Assembly: GCA_017457295.1 (NCBI GenBank) | Contig: JAFTHS010000050.1 | Span: forward strand, 1-59,986 | Length of the DNA: 59,986 nucleotides | DNA from: Paludibacteraceae bacterium | Lineage (GTDB): Bacteria > Bacteroidota > Bacteroidia > Bacteroidales > Paludibacteraceae | Direction: 5' to 3' | Part shown: positions 21,805-41,725 of the stretch, piece by piece | How positions within the stretch are numbered: the first letter of the stretch is position 1 | Layout of the letters: the number at the start of each line of letters is the position of its first letter | Notes under the pieces: model-generated | Told to the model about the DNA's origin: nothing | The model's input: the letters and a program-made list of their open reading frames with translations, nothing else | The model's database searches: none | Translations under genes and position numbers: made by a program

Positions 21805-21973
21805 TGCGTCTATTCGTAAAGAAGGGAAAAGACACTATTTGATATTTTAAGGTAACATTATCTTATTGATTAGATTTTTTAGGCAATTGGGGTTTCTATG
21901 GAGGCCCTAACCATTGTGTTATTAATACAAATACTACAACAAAAAACTATCTACTTACTACGCATCGTTTGAC

Positions 21974-23410
21974 ATGAAAAGGTTTATTGTTTTTCGTTTC
22001 AATACGCAATTCATTCGCCTCGCTATAGTATGCATAATGCTACTCTCTGCTATTGGGCAAGCCTACGCTGCTGATGCCATCATCGATGACAGCGAATGTA
22101 CTTGGCGTCTTGTCAGCAGCACATACGCCCTCAAGGTGGGCGATGAAGTTGTCATTGCTGCCAGCGATTACGATTTTGCTATCGACACCACTCACAACGA
22201 CAACAAACGAGGGCAAGCCAGCATCACCAGAGATGGCAATACTATCACTTTCGGCGAAGACGTCCAGATTTTCACTCTTCAATCAGGCACTGCAAATGGC
22301 ACTTTGGCCTTCTACACTGGTAGAGGTTATCTTTATGCCGAATCCAACAGTAGCGATCATCTGAAGACGGAGGCAAACGTTGATGGCGAAGGAAATAGTA
22401 ATTGGCAGGTTTCCATATCCAACAATATTGCCACCATCATCGCACAAGGAAACAAGACGCACAATGTCATACAATATTTCCAAGACGCAGAACAATCACA
22501 TTGTTATTTCACTTGCTACAATGCGGCTTTGCACCATACCTTGGCTATCTATAAAAAAGTATGTCCCCGCAGTGTTGGCGATGCGGGCTATGCTATCTCC
22601 GTATCTAATGATATTGTGCATGGCCAAGTCTCTGTATCCACACCACAAGCCCCCGCGGGCACCCAAGTCACCCTCACTGCCACACCTCAAGCAGAATATG
22701 TCTTTGATAGTTGGTTGGTAGTAGATGAACTTGGCACATCCATCCCTGTTACCAACAACGCTTTCATTATGCCCGAATCCGATGTGGTCATATTCGCCAC
22801 ATTCAAAAAAGATAGTCGATACAAATGGATACTTGTTACCGAGGCCGATTCGCTTAAGGTAGGCGACAAAGTGGTTATTGCTGCCTACGATTTCGATTAT
22901 GCTATCAGCACCACCCAGAATAATAGCACAAGAGGACAAGCTACCATTATCCGAGATGGCAATGGTATTCTGTTTGACGATGACGTACAGGTGTTCACCC
23001 TCCAGCAGGGAACTGCCGAAGGCACTTTTGCTTTCTACACAGGCACTGGCTACCTTTACGCAGGATCAAGTAGTAGCAACCAACTAAAAACAGAAGCCAA
23101 CATGGATGCCCATGGCAATAGCAATTGGAATATATCTATCTCTAACGACATCGCTACTATTGTTGCACAAGGCAATCATTCCCATAATACAATGCAGTAT
23201 TATCACGATCCCACCCACTACCATTTTGCTTGTTATCTTGAGCACACACAATCTGCCTTAGCTATCTACAAGCAATATACTCCTGACTATACACCCGAAA
23301 TCAACTACTCTGTCACCTACTATGGCTTTACTACCATGTGCGATGGCAATCCTGCAACAGCCAAGTATCAAAAGGTGCCACACACACTATTCCTACTTGC
23401 ACATCATTAG
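21974..23410 (+). CDS. Secreted repeat surface protein, N-terminal part of a frameshifted gene
   Basis: The 478-residue frame begins with a long signal peptide (to about residue 32). It carries two tandem units of about 155 residues (about 42-196 and 283-440), each starting LKVGDEVVIAA/LKVGDKVVIAA and ending LAIYK. Between them is a bacterial repeat domain (about 205-275; VTLTATPQAEYVFDSW). An InlB-like domain starts near 447, but the frame breaks after AKYQK and runs out of frame to a stop. The continuation lies in the −1 frame from about 23374. It is probably an exported adhesin-like or cell-surface protein of unknown ligand. Confidence 0.8.
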   Translation: MKRFIVFRFNTQFIRLAIVCIMLLSAIGQAYAADAIIDDSECTWRLVSSTYALKVGDEVVIAASDYDFAIDTTHNDNKRGQASITRDGNTITFGEDVQIFTLQSGTANGTLAFYTGRGYLYAESNSSDHLKTEANVDGEGNSNWQVSISNNIATIIAQGNKTHNVIQYFQDAEQSHCYFTCYNAALHHTLAIYKKVCPRSVGDAGYAISVSNDIVHGQVSVSTPQAPAGTQVTLTATPQAEYVFDSWLVVDELGTSIPVTNNAFIMPESDVVIFATFKKDSRYKWILVTEADSLKVGDKVVIAAYDFDYAISTTQNNSTRGQATIIRDGNGILFDDDVQVFTLQQGTAEGTFAFYTGTGYLYAGSSSSNQLKTEANMDAHGNSNWNISISNDIATIVAQGNHSHNTMQYYHDPTHYHFACYLEHTQSALAIYKQYTPDYTPEINYSVTYYGFTTMCDGNPATAKYQKVPHTLFLLAHH

Positions 23411-24978
23411 CAGACCCAAAAGGTTTAGAACGCACATTCAATGGCACTTGGAACACTCACCCCAACGGAACAGGCATGTCATACACCCCTGGCGATAGCT
23501 TCACTGTCACAGAGAATGTGACACTCTATGCTCAATGGTCAATGAATATTACCAACAACATTACCCTGCCCAACAATGTCATTGATATGTCAAGCACAGA
23601 TGTCATTGTATATGGCGGCACTACATTATCTCTACCCGAAGAAGGGACTATCACCATCCGTTCGCTCACGCTCAAAGCAGGCATACAAAGCTATGGCCAA
23701 TATGCTATGCCCACGGTGTATATACCTAAAAAAGCGAACTTGGTAAGAAACCAACCCAATATCATTCTCGATTTGGTAGTCAACAACCAATCTTTCTATT
23801 CTTTCGCTGTACCATTTGCGGTGGAAAATACCGACAACAATATCCATTATCTCAACCCTATACTCAAGAATGCAGCTAAATACGGCACCCATTTCTGCAT
23901 CTACACCTACGATGGCGAATTACGAGCCCAATCGGGCGTACAAGACAACAATTGGGTAGCCATACCACGTGGCACTACGCTTCAGCCTGGCACAGGATAC
24001 ATCATTTCTGCCGTACCTGCAGGAGGTCAAGACACCACCACCATTCGCATCACCCTACCTGATATAGACAACGCATGGACTGCAGAAGGAGAACAAACCT
24101 CTGTTAACAAAGTCAAACGCCATGAGGTATCGGTCAAAGCACATACTGGTGCTGCTGCCAAAGCGGAATTGCATCATGCGGGATGGAATTATATAGCCAA
24201 CCCCTATATGGCCCATTTCGAAGGCAACAAAATCAGCGATAAAGTATCCTACGCCACTATTCCTGCACCTAATTTTGCATACTACACGCAAACACCTCTT
24301 AGCGAGACCACATTGAGTCCTTTGTATGGCTTCTTCGTACAAGTCGAATCGGATAGCAAAATATCGTTCTCTGCTGATGGACGTCAGCAACTTCCCAAAT
24401 CCCTTCGAGCAGTTGCAGCCAACGACCTCCATGCCACCATCACTATTCAAGGAAATAACCAAAGCGATAAAACGGGTATTATCGTGGGCAACGACTACAT
24501 AACGGATTATGAAATCGGAGCCGACTTAGAAAAGATGTTTGGCTATGGCAACACTACTTCTATCTACACACTTAGCCATAATATCCGTATGGCATACAAT
24601 GCACTACCCTATGCCGATGCCACGCAATCCATACCATTAGGATTCAACGCACCAAAAGCAGGAGAATATACCATCTCACTCAGCCACATTACCAATCTTA
24701 CGAATAGCGCACTACTACTCCACGACCGCACTACCCAAACCACCACCAACCTTCTGCATATGGACTATACTTTCCAAGCCACCAAAGGTCAATACGACAG
24801 CCGCTTTGTCATCTATCTCGCTGCAGAAGATAATTGCCCAACCCACATCTCAAATAGCCACTTATCTACTAAGCAAACAACCCAAAAGATTATTCACAAC
24901 AACAAATTGTACATTATTCACAACGGACAGCTATACAACAACGCAGGACAATTGATAAAACATAATGCAGGCTACTAA
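23338..24978 (+). CDS. Surface protein, C-terminal part of the frameshifted gene
   Basis: The open frame is 546 residues, but the real continuation starts with KGATHTIP at residue 12. It completes the InlB-like repeat ending VTLYAQW and then carries a module of about 450 residues shared with the second cassette protein (AVPFAVEN, LQPGTGYIISA, HAGWNYIANPYMA, ADLEKMFGYGNTTSIYTL, SIPLGFNAP). The C-terminus, NNKLYIIHNGQLYNNAGQ, matches the ends of the proteins at 25564 and 54500 and resembles a secretion or sorting tail. It overlaps the next small gene by 14 bases. Confidence 0.78.
   Translation: MRWQSCNSQVSKGATHTIPTCTSLADPKGLERTFNGTWNTHPNGTGMSYTPGDSFTVTENVTLYAQWSMNITNNITLPNNVIDMSSTDVIVYGGTTLSLPEEGTITIRSLTLKAGIQSYGQYAMPTVYIPKKANLVRNQPNIILDLVVNNQSFYSFAVPFAVENTDNNIHYLNPILKNAAKYGTHFCIYTYDGELRAQSGVQDNNWVAIPRGTTLQPGTGYIISAVPAGGQDTTTIRITLPDIDNAWTAEGEQTSVNKVKRHEVSVKAHTGAAAKAELHHAGWNYIANPYMAHFEGNKISDKVSYATIPAPNFAYYTQTPLSETTLSPLYGFFVQVESDSKISFSADGRQQLPKSLRAVAANDLHATITIQGNNQSDKTGIIVGNDYITDYEIGADLEKMFGYGNTTSIYTLSHNIRMAYNALPYADATQSIPLGFNAPKAGEYTISLSHITNLTNSALLLHDRTTQTTTNLLHMDYTFQATKGQYDSRFVIYLAAEDNCPTHISNSHLSTKQTTQKIIHNNKLYIIHNGQLYNNAGQLIKHNAGY
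23370..23375 (+). other. Frameshift site AAAAGG
   Basis: Reading ..CAA AAG GTG.. in frame one and ..AAA GGT GCC.. in the −1 frame joins the two halves as AKYQ-KGATHTIP. One extra G (or one slip) in the AAAAGG run restores a protein of about 1000 residues. Confidence 0.8.
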
Positions 24979-38118: not shown

Positions 38119-39000
38119 TTACTCTTCTTTTTTTCCCAAATTGAATGCGTAATACACTTTCACACCAAATTCCAGTGGAATAGAATTAGAAGCTACGATC
38201 TCATACACATTGGCTGTAGCAACCGTTGACACTTCTTCAGAGATATGTGCAGGTGGAGTTACTTGTATGATTGGGCTATCGTATTCTGTTCTCATATTAT
38301 TCCAGCAACCTACATGGAAATACCCCAACACACCTACCATCTGATTCCATTCATAGCCAATCTCCGTCCCTACATAAATGTCGAATCGTGCTTTTGGCTT
38401 GGTCAAGGATATGGGTTGTACCATTTGTTCTTCTGCCAGCACTCCGGTGATGATTTCGTTAGGCACTTCCACGCCGTAAGCAGGATAATATGCCACCACC
38501 ATAGGATCCACGAAGCCTTGCTGACCGCTTCTATGCACGGCTACACGAAACATCGGACCTATATCAAAAATCACACCTTTGGCTCTTAGAGCAAACATCA
38601 GAGGCACTTCGGCTGTCACTTGGTTGCATTTCACTTGGCATTCTCCCGACGTAGTATAATCGATGATATTATCCAAGTAATCGCGTGTAGTGTAGTGGTC
38701 AGAGAACCCTAAGTTGTACTTAGCATTTTGGTATCCAATGTTCACACCCAAACGCACACCCAAATCTATAGATGTAGATGCCGAATCTGCGGGAGTTGAC
38801 ATATAGAACACACAATCCATACCTACCGAACCAGCGAATCCCACTTTATTAGGAACGAGTTTCTCGTATTGCGCCACATTGTATTGCCCTCCGCCTTTCA
38901 GCCCGAAGCGCATCATATGATGCTGGGCATGTATCAGCGACGAGCATACCATGAAGAGCGATAGCAATAGTGAATATTTATATACTTGCTTAGTCATCAT
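38119..39000 (-). CDS. Outer-membrane beta-barrel protein
   Basis: The 293-residue protein has a signal peptide (about 1-25), repeated amphipathic strands (FGLKGGGQYNVA, GVRLGVNIGYQ, FGVKVYYAFNLG) and an end typical of OMP_b-brl_2 barrels. It is the last gene of a four-gene leftward operon and overlaps the gene for the sorting-tail protein by 11 bases. By analogy with SprF/PorP-type partners of secreted Bacteroidota adhesins it may anchor or export the upstream products. That role is inference. Confidence 0.75.
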   Translation of the reverse strand: MMTKQVYKYSLLLSLFMVCSSLIHAQHHMMRFGLKGGGQYNVAQYEKLVPNKVGFAGSVGMDCVFYMSTPADSASTSIDLGVRLGVNIGYQNAKYNLGFSDHYTTRDYLDNIIDYTTSGECQVKCNQVTAEVPLMFALRAKGVIFDIGPMFRVAVHRSGQQGFVDPMVVAYYPAYGVEVPNEIITGVLAEEQMVQPISLTKPKARFDIYVGTEIGYEWNQMVGVLGYFHVGCWNNMRTEYDSPIIQVTPPAHISEEVSTVATANVYEIVASNSIPLEFGVKVYYAFNLGKKEE

Positions 39001-39784
39001 TCACAATATAACGCATGGTTTGATTGATTGTTTCCGACACCACTTTCACCTGATAGCAGCCTGCCATAGGTACAGGATCCAACATATATGTACTCTCTTT
39101 GTTAGCTTGCAGTGTTTGAACCAGTTGTCCGGTCATACTATATACATATATATGTGTATCCTCTTCTGGATTCAGACCGGTCAATTTCATTTGTTGCCCA
39201 ACCACCACAGAGTTTGGTAGCAGAGCCACTCTTGCTGCTTGACTTGCGCCCGAATAGCATACGATCTCTGACCGCATCAATCCGTCGCATATCAAGCCAC
39301 GCACATCGCTAACATCCACCACAGCGTAGTAGTTACCCGTTCCTTTCAGACTCTTGTCTAAGGTGAGATAGTAACTATTCTCCCCTACCAACTGATCATC
39401 CAGGGGGAACATGCCATGCATATCATCGGGTTCATCTACCACGCGATACCATGTCACATCCTCGGGATCGAAATAGTACCCTTGCTCATTGATTGCACGC
39501 ACGTTTATCATTAGCAACCAATCATATAGCGCCACTACGGGCCAATTGGCATACTCTTCACAGTTCGATGCAAAATAAGCAATAAATGTAAGATCTTCGG
39601 TAACTTCAATTAGTCGAATCGCTTCTTCATTACCATCATTCCAACGAACGAAGTGGTAATCTTCATACGGATTCGCAGAAATTTCTATCCACGTACCACA
39701 AGGTATGCCCTTATATTCCTCTGCCCGAGTTGGGCAGAAGAACATAAGTAGCATAATCAGTGTATAGGATAGCTTTGATCTCAT
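38990..39784 (-). CDS. Secreted protein beginning with a half repeat domain and ending in a T9SS-like tail
   Basis: The 264-residue protein has a signal peptide (about 1-21). It then opens directly with the second half of a bacterial repeat domain (about 27-73: CGTWIEISANP, YHFVRWNDGNEE, FIAYFA). An immunoglobulin-like region follows (about 80-180). The last 80 residues (VALLPNSVVVG, IYVYSMTGQLV, GCYQVKV) look like a type IX sorting domain. No first half of the repeat precedes it. The missing half is found at the end of the upstream gene's product. It is the third gene of the operon. Confidence 0.78.
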   Translation of the reverse strand: MRSKLSYTLIMLLMFFCPTRAEEYKGIPCGTWIEISANPYEDYHFVRWNDGNEEAIRLIEVTEDLTFIAYFASNCEEYANWPVVALYDWLLMINVRAINEQGYYFDPEDVTWYRVVDEPDDMHGMFPLDDQLVGENSYYLTLDKSLKGTGNYYAVVDVSDVRGLICDGLMRSEIVCYSGASQAARVALLPNSVVVGQQMKLTGLNPEEDTHIYVYSMTGQLVQTLQANKESTYMLDPVPMAGCYQVKVVSETINQTMRYIVNDD

Positions 39785-39821
39785 TTTCTGTTCCTATAGG
39801 TTCGAAACTATGGTTATTGCC

Positions 39822-41207
39822 TTAGAGTTTCTCAATAGTTACAGTACCCATTGTCTCGTCCGCAGACTCAACTGTGATAGTGTACTTCCTAACTTCGAAG
39901 GTTGCAATGAGTTCAACATTGCCAGTTACCTTAAACGTTAAGGATTCTTCTTTATCACCATTACTCCATTGCTTGAATTTGTAGCAGCCGTCAGGTGTTG
40001 CTATAACAGTAACTTCTTCTCCGTACTCATACGTACCTGCACCAGTAACTGTACCATGCTCAGGATCATCGACCTTAACGGTTACTGTATATCTATTCTT
40101 AGTAGCCTTGTAAGTTGCTGTGTATACTTGAGTTTCAATCTTCTCTGTTACTGGAGTAATTGATGGATCTGATGTAGCCCAACCATCAAATGTATATGTC
40201 CATTGTCCTGTGGTGTCAACTCTCTCTGGTACTGGTATATTTTGAGCCATCTTACCATATTCCACATCCTCTGTGTGTAGTATAGTTCCATCATGATCCT
40301 TGAAGGTTACAGTATATACTTGTTTAATAGCCTTAAAGTTTGCTTCGTATACTGCAGGTCCTGTTACCGTTACTAAATCAGGTTTCCATGTTCCATCCCA
40401 CTCATATTTATATTCATATGTCTCAGCTTTTGTAGGAATTACCTCAGAGTCATATACTGGTTTTTCGCCATATGCAACCCCTTTCTCATAAATTATTGTA
40501 CCATTACCATCTTTGAAGGTAATTGTATATTCCTTAGCAGTATGTTTATATTGAGCTATATAAGTATGAGTCTCAGGTTTTTCTGTTACAGGCACAAGTT
40601 CTTTAGGGTTCCAACCTATAAATTCCCAAGTATAATGCTGATCGTTTTCATCTACTTGTATTCTCTCTGGATTTTTACTTGGGAAAGTTGGGTAGCCACC
40701 ATATGGAACTTGCTCTGATTTTATTGGTGTGCCGTCATTATTATAGAATGTAACAGTATACATTGTAGGTATTTCCTTAAATACTGCAGTAAAAGATTGA
40801 GCATGTGCAGGAACTGTAGGTACCGCTTCTAAACTTGGCTCCCAGCCTATAAATTCCCATGTTGATTTATTTGGATCAACTTCTTTCTCTGGAACAGCAC
40901 CTTTGTAAGTAATAGCAGAACCATATGGCAGTTTCTCTGCAGCGAGAAGTAACTCACCATTCCAGTTTTTAAAACTAATCTCATAGAGATTTGGAGCAAA
41001 TGTCGCAACATACTTCTTCAAATTTTCATTAACCTCAACTACGCGAGTGGAGTCTGTATTACCATCTGACCATTGTACAAAGTGATAACCTTCCTTAGGA
41101 GTTGCAGTAATTTTAACTAGACTACCGCAATCGCACGTTTCCGTAGCAGCTTGCGCTGTTATGGCGATTGAGCAGAACATCGCCAAAAAGAATAAAAGTT
41201 TTTTCAT
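39822..41207 (-). CDS. Secreted InlB-repeat protein flanked by two half repeat domains
   Basis: The 461-residue protein has a signal peptide (about 1-20), then a C-terminal half bacterial repeat (about 22-72: CGSLVKITATP, YHFVQWSDGNTD). Four InlB/Listeria-Bacteroides type repeats follow (about 73-145, 148-222, 226-292 and 296-368), then one complete bacterial repeat (372-438), and finally an N-terminal half repeat that stops at GTVTIEKL (441-461). There is no sorting tail. Both ends are therefore incomplete domains. It is the second gene of the operon. Confidence 0.8.
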   Translation of the reverse strand: MKKLLFFLAMFCSIAITAQAATETCDCGSLVKITATPKEGYHFVQWSDGNTDSTRVVEVNENLKKYVATFAPNLYEISFKNWNGELLLAAEKLPYGSAITYKGAVPEKEVDPNKSTWEFIGWEPSLEAVPTVPAHAQSFTAVFKEIPTMYTVTFYNNDGTPIKSEQVPYGGYPTFPSKNPERIQVDENDQHYTWEFIGWNPKELVPVTEKPETHTYIAQYKHTAKEYTITFKDGNGTIIYEKGVAYGEKPVYDSEVIPTKAETYEYKYEWDGTWKPDLVTVTGPAVYEANFKAIKQVYTVTFKDHDGTILHTEDVEYGKMAQNIPVPERVDTTGQWTYTFDGWATSDPSITPVTEKIETQVYTATYKATKNRYTVTVKVDDPEHGTVTGAGTYEYGEEVTVIATPDGCYKFKQWSNGDKEESLTFKVTGNVELIATFEVRKYTITVESADETMGTVTIEKL

Positions 41208-41317
41208 AATAATAAAATTTTTAAGTGTTTGTTATTATTTTTCTAATTTAATGGTTACTACTATTCACTTGGTTGTTATCCTTCATAAATAACCCCTTGA
41301 TATACCTAATGTAAATA

Positions 41318-41725
41318 CTATAACTTCTCAATACCAACCGTTCCTTTGGCAGGATCAGAGGTATCCACTGTGATTGTAAATTGCTTTATTTCAAAGATAG
41401 CGGAAATAGTAAAATTGCCATGTACTTGTATCGATCGATGCTTATCAGTTATACCATCCGACCACTTTACAAATTCAAGACAATCATCTGATGGAGTTCC
41501 TACCGAGAAGGTAATAGATTCTCCCGCTTCCACCAAATATTCCTTACTAACGCTTCCATTATCAATAGTGACCTTGTACATCACAGGGTCAGAAGCAGCA
41601 GATGGTTCAGCAGAAACAGAAGAAAGTTGGCTATTAGACGGCACACGAACTGTAGAGCCCAAAGCGGGCAGTACATACAACATAAAAGAAAGCAGCAAAA
41701 CAATATGTGCAAGCCGTGTTTTCAC
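41318..41725 (-). CDS. Small secreted protein ending in a half repeat domain
   Basis: The 135-residue protein has a signal peptide (about 1-23), a Ser/Pro linker, one complete bacterial repeat domain (about 49-112: VTIDNGSVSKEY, FVKWSDGITD, ISAIFE) and then the first half of another (115-135), ending GTVGIEKL at the stop. The end is cut at the same point of the fold as the next gene's product. It is the first gene of the operon, behind the promoter at 41773-41804. Confidence 0.75.
   Translation of the reverse strand: MKTRLAHIVLLLSFMLYVLPALGSTVRVPSNSQLSSVSAEPSAASDPVMYKVTIDNGSVSKEYLVEAGESITFSVGTPSDDCLEFVKWSDGITDKHRSIQVHGNFTISAIFEIKQFTITVDTSDPAKGTVGIEKL

What the first reader, a model, noticed from the sequence alone, without database searches (positions are those of the whole stretch)
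38990..41725. Three consecutive genes split at the same point of one repeat fold
Seen directly: the 135-residue and 461-residue proteins both stop at GTV(G/T)IEKL, one hairpin into a bacterial repeat domain. The products of the next two genes begin, right after their signal peptides, with the second half of that same fold (CGSLVKITATP.. and CGTWIEISANP..). A complete copy inside the 461-residue protein (372-438) shows that the two halves would join at the loop after GTVT. The cut is the same at both junctions, each gene has its own signal peptide, and only the third product has a sorting-like tail. The fourth gene is an outer-membrane barrel. Inference: the products may join head to tail by intermolecular completion of a beta-domain, with the 264-residue protein as surface anchor, the 461-residue protein as middle unit and the 135-residue protein as tip. 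This would be a donor-strand-like polymer or adhesin stalk. A plainer alternative is fission of one long adhesin gene with loose repeat ends.
Basis: partly seen in the sequence, partly recalled or inferred. Interest (0 to 1): 0.8.

Follow-up and report, generated by a model that had tools for sequence, protein, structure and literature searches.

The report
Snap-together three-protein surface complex
In a family of uncultured gut bacteria, three neighbouring genes make exported proteins that each seem to carry half of a shared fold, so that they probably snap together end to end on the cell surface like plug and socket, letting very different cargo proteins be shown on one standard anchor.

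Summary
The cut is real and not a one-off. The window's 135-, 461- and 264-residue genes are one copy of a recurrent cassette: tip (ends in a beta-hairpin 'plug'), linker (starts with a 'socket', ends with a plug) and anchor (socket plus type IX sorting domain), often followed by a barrel-like gene. I surveyed 57 loci, mostly chosen by their anchors. Of 99 sockets with an upstream gene in view, 97 follow an end that fits a loose plug pattern; a stricter profile scores 76 of 97 upstream ends against 8 of 267 control ends. Of 50 chains, 47 have exactly three genes. All 103 sockets carry a cysteine at the cut and 96 of 97 upstream ends carry one near the plug; in 76 repeats of long proteins of the genus each position is cysteine once. 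Two natural fusions have the whole fold and no cysteine at that place. Plugs of tip and linker in one cassette resemble each other. Tips are unrelated (leucine-rich repeats, endonuclease I). The layout was seen only in one family, Paludibacteraceae by record titles. Best reading: head-to-tail assembly by completion of a split domain, probably disulfide-locked. No structure could be predicted (tool switched off), so pairing is inferred. A longer polymer is possible, not shown.

The parts
41318..41725 (-). tip gene, 135 aa: leader, one complete repeat, C-terminal plug; its only cysteine is C82
41321..41392 (-). plug of the tip (residues 112-135, ..FTITVDTSDPAKGTVGIEKL)
41480..41482 (-). Cys82 in the loop of the tip's complete repeat, proposed disulfide partner of the linker socket cysteine (inference)
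   Evidence: controls
39822..41207 (-). linker gene, 461 aa: leader, socket, List_Bact repeats, one complete PF18998 repeat, plug
40992..41129 (-). socket of the linker (residues 27-72, begins CGSLVKITATP)
39984..39986 (-). Cys408 in the loop of the linker's last complete repeat
39825..39896 (-). plug of the linker (residues 438-461, ..YTITVESADETMGTVTIEKL)
38990..39784 (-). anchor gene, 264 aa: leader, socket, conserved body, T9SS type A sorting domain
39566..39700 (-). socket of the anchor (residues 29-73, begins CGTWIEISANP; Cys29 invariant in 9 of 9 aligned anchors)
39002..39217 (-). T9SS type A sorting domain of the anchor (TIGR04183, residues 190-261)
38119..39000 (-). barrel-like gene, 293 aa, overlapping the anchor gene by 11 bases; possible dedicated carrier (inference; no family match)

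Best explanation
The three genes encode a tip, a linker and an anchor of one cell-surface complex. Each joint is a single InlB-B-repeat-like domain shared between two proteins: the upstream protein ends with the first beta-hairpin (plug) and the downstream protein begins, right after its leader, with the rest of the domain (socket). In the periplasm the plug would enter the socket, completing the sheet. A disulfide between the cysteine at the start of the socket and one beside the plug would lock the joint. Only the anchor carries a type IX sorting domain, so it would carry the joined chain through the outer membrane and hold it at the surface, perhaps with the neighbouring barrel-like protein as carrier. 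Unrelated tips can thus be shown on one standard base. Shown: gene layout, both half-domains, cysteine pattern, selection on both halves, sorting domain, a T9SS translocon gene. Inferred: pairing, disulfide, route and order of assembly.
For: 103 socket ORFs in the survey; of 99 with an upstream ORF in view, 97 follow an end that fits a loose hairpin pattern (null 53 of 268, so that pattern alone is weak). A hairpin profile trained on 83 repeats, nearly all from other families, scores 76 of 97 upstream ends at 2 bits or more against 8 of 267 control ends. 47 of 50 chains are exactly three genes. Cysteine at socket position 1 in 103 of 103, and a Cys near the plug in 96 of 97 distinct upstream ends, against 1 of 76 at each position in repeats of long ORFs of the genus. 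Fusions L116 and L117 have the whole domain without a Cys at the cut. dN/dS about 0.16-0.18 on plugs and 0.12-0.13 on sockets over 13 chosen pairs. Plugs of tip and linker are alike within a cassette: 0.326 vs 0.186, 0 of 10000 permutations, also against other cassettes of the same genome. Tips are unrelated: LRR_5, endonuclease I, others without a match. Anchor T9SS domain; SprA in the genome.
Against: No structure or complex model could be made, and a sequence search found no solved structure of the repeat (one match at E 0.97 to an unrelated protein). No VKOR and no DsbA family match in the 94.8% complete own genome, so how a disulfide would form is unclear. Exceptions: L044 has two sockets and no plug; no ORF lies within 300 bases upstream of the L097 linker; the L280 linker has no plug upstream; the L282 tip plug has no cysteine near it although its linker socket has one. 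Some earlier repeats inside LRR-type tips, and one other repeat in each of the two fusions, also carry a loop Cys, so that Cys is not strictly confined to the last repeat before a plug. The Cys in the 14 LRR-cap ends may simply belong to the cap. 21 of 97 upstream ends fall below 2 bits in the independent profile. The socket profile was seeded with Cys-first sequences, and loci were chosen mostly by their anchors, so the counts are not unbiased. Sockets of linker and anchor in one cassette resemble each other only weakly (0.382 vs 0.343; not significant within genomes).
Confidence: 0.75

Rival explanations
1. The linker polymerises: it has both a socket and a plug, so many linkers could form a shaft between one tip and one anchor, a pilus-like fibre.
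For: Three gene classes match cap, shaft and base. In one cassette the tip plug and the linker plug resemble each other, as expected if both must fit the linker socket.
Against: Linker and anchor sockets tend to differ in type (for example CGxxVxITATPxxGYHF vs CGTWxxL..EDYHF); no usher in the genome (PF00577; chaperones were not searched); nothing shows more than one linker per complex.
Confidence: 0.3
2. Each linker closes on itself, its own plug filling its own socket, and the three proteins do not join.
For: 38 of 47 distinct linkers have exactly two cysteines after residue 20. The solitary protein in L157 has a socket-like start, a plug-like end and no partner gene beside it.
Against: Tips have a plug and no socket, anchors a socket and no plug; the window tip has one cysteine in all; gene order and tip-linker plug similarity would be unexplained.
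Confidence: 0.1
3. Fission of one long adhesin gene with loose repeat ends that do nothing.
For: Fused versions of the anchor exist in the genus.
Against: Same cut in loci of three genera, purifying selection on plug ends, cysteines that go with split copies, unrelated tips with the same plug.
Confidence: 0.08
4. The proteins meet by plug and socket, but the cysteines serve something else (redox, metal or lipid) rather than an inter-subunit disulfide.
For: No VKOR or DsbA match in the genome; L282 plug without Cys.
Against: Inter-protein disulfides are reported for T9SS and gliding parts of Flavobacterium johnsoniae, and a PorG cysteine is reported as needed for export in the anaerobe Porphyromonas gingivalis (PMC12635249, passages); the residue before the socket Cys is D, P, H, N or A in 80 of 103, unlike a lipobox (recalled).
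Confidence: 0.3

Closest known systems
Donor-strand complementation in chaperone-usher pili
   Same: A segment of one subunit would complete the incomplete beta fold of the next; tip, middle and base classes (recalled; search listings)
   Different: Different fold (B repeat, not Ig), donor-like segment is a C-terminal hairpin rather than an N-terminal strand, no usher in the genome, T9SS sorting domain on the anchor
Type V (FimA/Mfa1) fimbriae of Bacteroidales
   Same: Bacteroidales surface assembly for which a donor-strand mechanism is proposed (PMC4789730 and PMC5954841, title and start of abstract in search listings only)
   Different: No FimA-type Pfam match in the four window proteins; leaders do not look like lipoprotein leaders (recalled rule); the repeated unit is a three-gene cassette ending in a T9SS anchor
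SprB adhesin and its carrier SprF (type B T9SS)
   Same: A surface protein and an adjacent outer-membrane-type gene; 13 of 51 complete barrel-like ORFs in the surveyed loci end in a Cys-X-Cys tail like that reported for SprF and PorG (PMC12635249, passages)
   Different: Sorting domain is type A (TIGR04183); the window's barrel has no such tail and matches no family
InlB B repeat / PF18998 tandem-repeat surface proteins
   Same: Same repeat family; the InlB B repeat is described as resembling a beta-grasp fold without its helix (PMC8900821, passages)
   Different: There the domain is whole in one chain; here it is split between two proteins with cysteines at the cut

Membership tests
PF18998 divergent InlB B-repeat | profile match over the curated cut-off | tested here: met
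   461 aa protein 87.1 bits, cut-off 23.6; the socket of the 264 aa protein alone is 14.7 bits, below the cut-off; no match in the 135 aa protein
T9SS type A cargo | TIGR04183 sorting domain | tested here: met
   264 aa protein 29.8 bits, cut-off 23; no match in tip and linker
T9SS type A cargo | T9SS translocon SprA in the genome | tested here: met
   TIGR04189 2657.9 bits in G000
T9SS type B (SprB/SprF) | type B sorting domain | tested here: not met
   only TIGR04183 and one irrelevant weak match listed for the anchor
T9SS type B (SprB/SprF) | dedicated outer-membrane carrier gene beside the cargo | tested here: inconclusive
   barrel-like gene directly downstream of 39 of 53 terminal sockets with room; no family match for the window's; Cys-X-Cys tail in 13 of 51, not in the window's
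chaperone-usher pili | usher gene | tested here: not met
   PF00577 absent in G000
chaperone-usher pili | Ig-like pilin completed by an N-terminal donor strand | tested here: not met
   repeat family is PF18998 and the donor-like segment is at the C-terminus
type V fimbriae | FimA-type family match | tested here: not met
   no such Pfam match at E up to 1 in the four window proteins
type V fimbriae | protease-triggered strand exchange | not testable with these tools
   needs biochemistry
fold complementation between subunits (as a mechanism) | the two half-domains bind and complete one fold | not testable with these tools
   Structure prediction switched off

The most novel reading that the evidence does not exclude
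A new class of self-assembling, disulfide-locked surface fibre: a common plug-and-socket made from a split B-repeat domain lets proteins without a sorting signal, including enzymes such as endonuclease I, join a shared anchor in the periplasm and leave the cell as one type IX cargo, with the linker able to repeat as a shaft and each cassette keeping its own matched plug and socket.
Probability: 0.35. Interest if true: 0.93.

Novelty: new variant of a known kind. Interest (0 to 1): 0.82.

Why it matters
It would be a new way for bacteria to build multi-protein surface structures and to export proteins that have no type IX signal of their own: one sorting domain would serve three proteins. It would extend donor-strand logic to a different fold and a different secretion system. 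The short plug (about 20 residues) and socket (about 45 residues) could be useful as a protein-joining tool, and the matched pairs within cassettes offer a natural data set on binding specificity. It also gives a function to proteins that annotation would call broken or truncated repeats.

Tried and rejected
A loose hairpin pattern was too permissive (53 of 268 controls), so it was replaced by an independent profile (one search stopped with a script error after printing its repeat counts and building the profile, and one search did the scoring). Alignments A4 and A5 put linker-alone rows across the joint, which would have biased a fold towards pairing; they were replaced by A6 and A7 without those rows, which in the end could not be folded. 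A direct test of plug-socket residue covariation was not done; only similarity tests were. Misassembly was rejected because the layout recurs in many genomes. A lipoprotein role for the socket cysteine was rejected from the residues before it. Rows dropped: 4 of 107 socket candidates had no convincing leader, three of them internal repeats and one (L042/L045 type) cut at a contig end; 19 of 47 cassettes were dropped as near duplicates before the similarity test; one of six extra linker loci, L283, proved to be a single-chain protein.

Held-out check: five further linkers found by the linker profile, after L283 was set aside: judged by eye, 4 of 5 have a plug upstream, 3 of those 4 with a nearby Cys; a socket downstream is seen in 3 of 5; in L278 the anchor is in pieces and its socket was not seen, and in L280 the linker itself runs off the contig.
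Full report
What is in the window. On the minus strand, genes of 135, 461, 264 and 293 aa follow each other (41725-41318, 41207-39822, 39784-38990, 39000-38119). The 135 and 461 proteins end one hairpin into a PF18998-type repeat; the 461 and 264 proteins begin, after a leader, where that hairpin would end. Pfam sees a complete PF18998 copy in the 461 protein and only positions 21-68 of 73 in the 264 protein (E 0.031, below the cut-off); TIGR04183, a type IX type A sorting domain, is in the 264 protein and not in the other two.

It recurs. The window lies in a 145-contig genome. Of 15 named relatives found in a genome collection, two are titled Paludibacteraceae and one Candidatus Colicola, the rest Bacteroidales. 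A search with the 264 protein found separate anchors of similar length in several genomes of the genus and long fused forms in others. I fetched stretches around standalone anchors and a few other places and surveyed 57 loci including the window; they were chosen mostly by their anchors, so the survey is not a random sample.

The survey. A half-domain profile gave 107 ORFs whose first copy follows a possible leader; 4 were dropped for want of a real leader, leaving 103 sockets. Of these, 99 have an ORF of 90 aa or more ending close upstream, and 97 of those 99 end in a loose hairpin pattern. The other 4 have none within 300 bases: in L082 a plug lies further off (about 420 bases), L099 starts near a contig end, and L097 and one socket of L044 are exceptions. 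Since 53 of 268 control ORFs also fit the loose pattern, I trained a hairpin profile on 83 repeats from the order and phylum samples (one locus, L245, is from the same family, the rest from others). It scores 76 of 97 distinct upstream ends at 2 bits or more against 8 of 267 control ends, rank test p about 3e-42; 21 upstream ends score lower. Two of the best control hits look like real plugs (L082 and a second tip-like ORF in L095). The two failures of the loose pattern are L044, which has two sockets and no plug, and one cassette of L102, whose tip ends in a longer tail.

Layout. Chains run tip, linker, anchor: 47 of 50 have exactly three genes; 3 show two (L043, L082, L096), and in L082 and L096 an anchor follows that the script did not chain. 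A barrel-like gene follows 39 of 53 terminal sockets that have room downstream; among the 14 others are linkers that the script took for terminal, short anchors with another tail, and several ordinary anchors. The 11 compact linkers aligned (leader, half, full repeat, half) all share Cys27 and Cys114. By my count of the rows, compact linkers occur in 34 of 178 genomes of the genus and longer ones in 9 more. In samples of 295 genomes of the order and 395 of the phylum, no listed hit outside the own genome covers the linker profile from its start in a short ORF; hits there lie in longer repeat proteins (lists capped, best first).

Cysteines. All 103 sockets have Cys at position 1 (CG in 90), and 97 of them have no other Cys in the 46 residues taken. 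Of 97 distinct upstream ends, 64 have a Cys in the loop of the last complete repeat, 18 just before the hairpin, 14 in an LRR cap, and 1 (L044, not a plug) none of these. In 76 repeats of 29 long ORFs of the genus each of the two positions is Cys once, and the loop position is Gly in 61; the one loop Cys is in the tip protein of L034 itself. In 239 repeats of the order and phylum samples the counts are 8 (loop) and 11 (start), and in 5 repeats of long ORFs of the own genome none. The socket profile was built from Cys-first seeds, which favours but does not require Cys. The window's tip has a single cysteine. Two natural fusions, L116 and L117, carry the complete domain joined to the anchor body and have no Cys at the cut. 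On the other side, each of these fusions has another repeat with a loop Cys (next to a second Cys of its own), and some earlier repeats of LRR-type tips have loop Cys too, so the loop Cys is a strong tendency of split copies and not an absolute mark. Against a disulfide: no VKOR or DsbA match in the own genome, and one held-out tip plug without a nearby Cys (L282). For it: inter-protein disulfides of T9SS and gliding parts are reported in Flavobacterium johnsoniae, and a PorG cysteine is reported as needed for export in the anaerobe Porphyromonas gingivalis (PMC12635249, passages).

Selection and matching. Over 13 pairs of related cassettes that I chose, pooled dN/dS is about 0.16 and 0.18 for the two plugs and 0.12-0.13 for sockets; in one pair (first cassettes of L100 and L102) plug changes are nearly as frequent at replacement as at silent sites. 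In 28 dereplicated cassettes of 47, the plugs of tip and linker are more alike within a cassette than between (0.326 vs 0.186, 0 of 10000 permutations; own partner ranks first in 11 and beats the closest relative's in 71%); sockets less so (0.382 vs 0.343, own partner first in 3). In three genomes with two or three cassettes, plugs match within a cassette (mean 0.34) better than across cassettes of the same genome (0.13, p 0.007, 7 vs 10 comparisons; one of the 7 is near zero); sockets do not differ significantly (p 0.21). Permutation does not remove shared ancestry; the within-genome comparison helps but is small.

Tips. Of ten tips scanned with Pfam, two carry endonuclease I (L103, L041), two BspA-type LRR (L035, L112), two a PF18998 repeat (L040, L093), one a weak Ig-like domain (L100) and three nothing. 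Of eight tips scanned with NCBIfam, L094 has a choice-of-anchor J domain and a weak deoxyribonuclease match, L254 LRR adhesin matches, and six nothing; none shows a sorting domain at E up to 0.01. The plug is thus shared by unrelated proteins. Two anchors outside the survey (L281, L282) are little more than socket plus sorting-like tail (by eye).

How it most likely works. The InlB B repeat is described as resembling a beta-grasp fold without its helix (PMC8900821, passages). In such a fold the first strand lies in the middle of the sheet (recalled), so a socket without it should expose its core and a plug should fill it. I infer that the plug of the tip enters the socket of the linker, the linker's plug enters the anchor, a disulfide may lock each joint, and the anchor's sorting domain takes the joined chain out through the T9SS, whose translocon gene is present. 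The barrel-like protein may be a carrier; 13 of 51 complete barrel-like ORFs end in Cys-X-Cys, as reported for SprF and PorG, but the window's does not. Whether one or many linkers are used is open.

Novelty. Nine searches of an open-access library listed nothing that by title or start of abstract describes a split B-repeat joint or a T9SS cargo assembled this way; I saw listings, and passages of two papers, and most subscription papers are missing. The principle resembles donor-strand complementation, so I call it a new variant of a known kind; the fold, the position of the donor, the secretion route and the modular use appear new.

Noticed in passing
L157 (G005:C71), minus strand: A solitary 312-residue ORF begins with a socket-like half without Cys and ends in a plug-like hairpin, with unrelated genes on both sides; it could close on itself or form a homopolymer.
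   Followed up: partly
L038, L039, L083, L085, L087, L096, L099, L100, L102, L105-L107, L113: A barrel-like ORF ends in Cys-X-Cys in 13 of 51 complete ones in the surveyed loci, like the twin-cysteine tail reported for SprF and PorG.
   Followed up: partly
L103, L041, L094: Tips that carry endonuclease I or a weak deoxyribonuclease match, suggesting surface-held nucleases.
   Followed up: no
L044 (G014:C18): Two socket ORFs in a row with no plug upstream; the second ends without a plug.
   Followed up: partly
L100 and L102: Two complete cassettes in tandem; plug signatures are shared by tip and linker within a cassette and differ between neighbours, though the second tip of L102 has a longer tail.
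   Followed up: partly
window 21926-23410 (+) and 23287-24978 (+), stop-to-stop stretches: One stretch with a single-chain repeat lacking the loop cysteine, and a following one with a short tail resembling those of some anchors.
   Followed up: no
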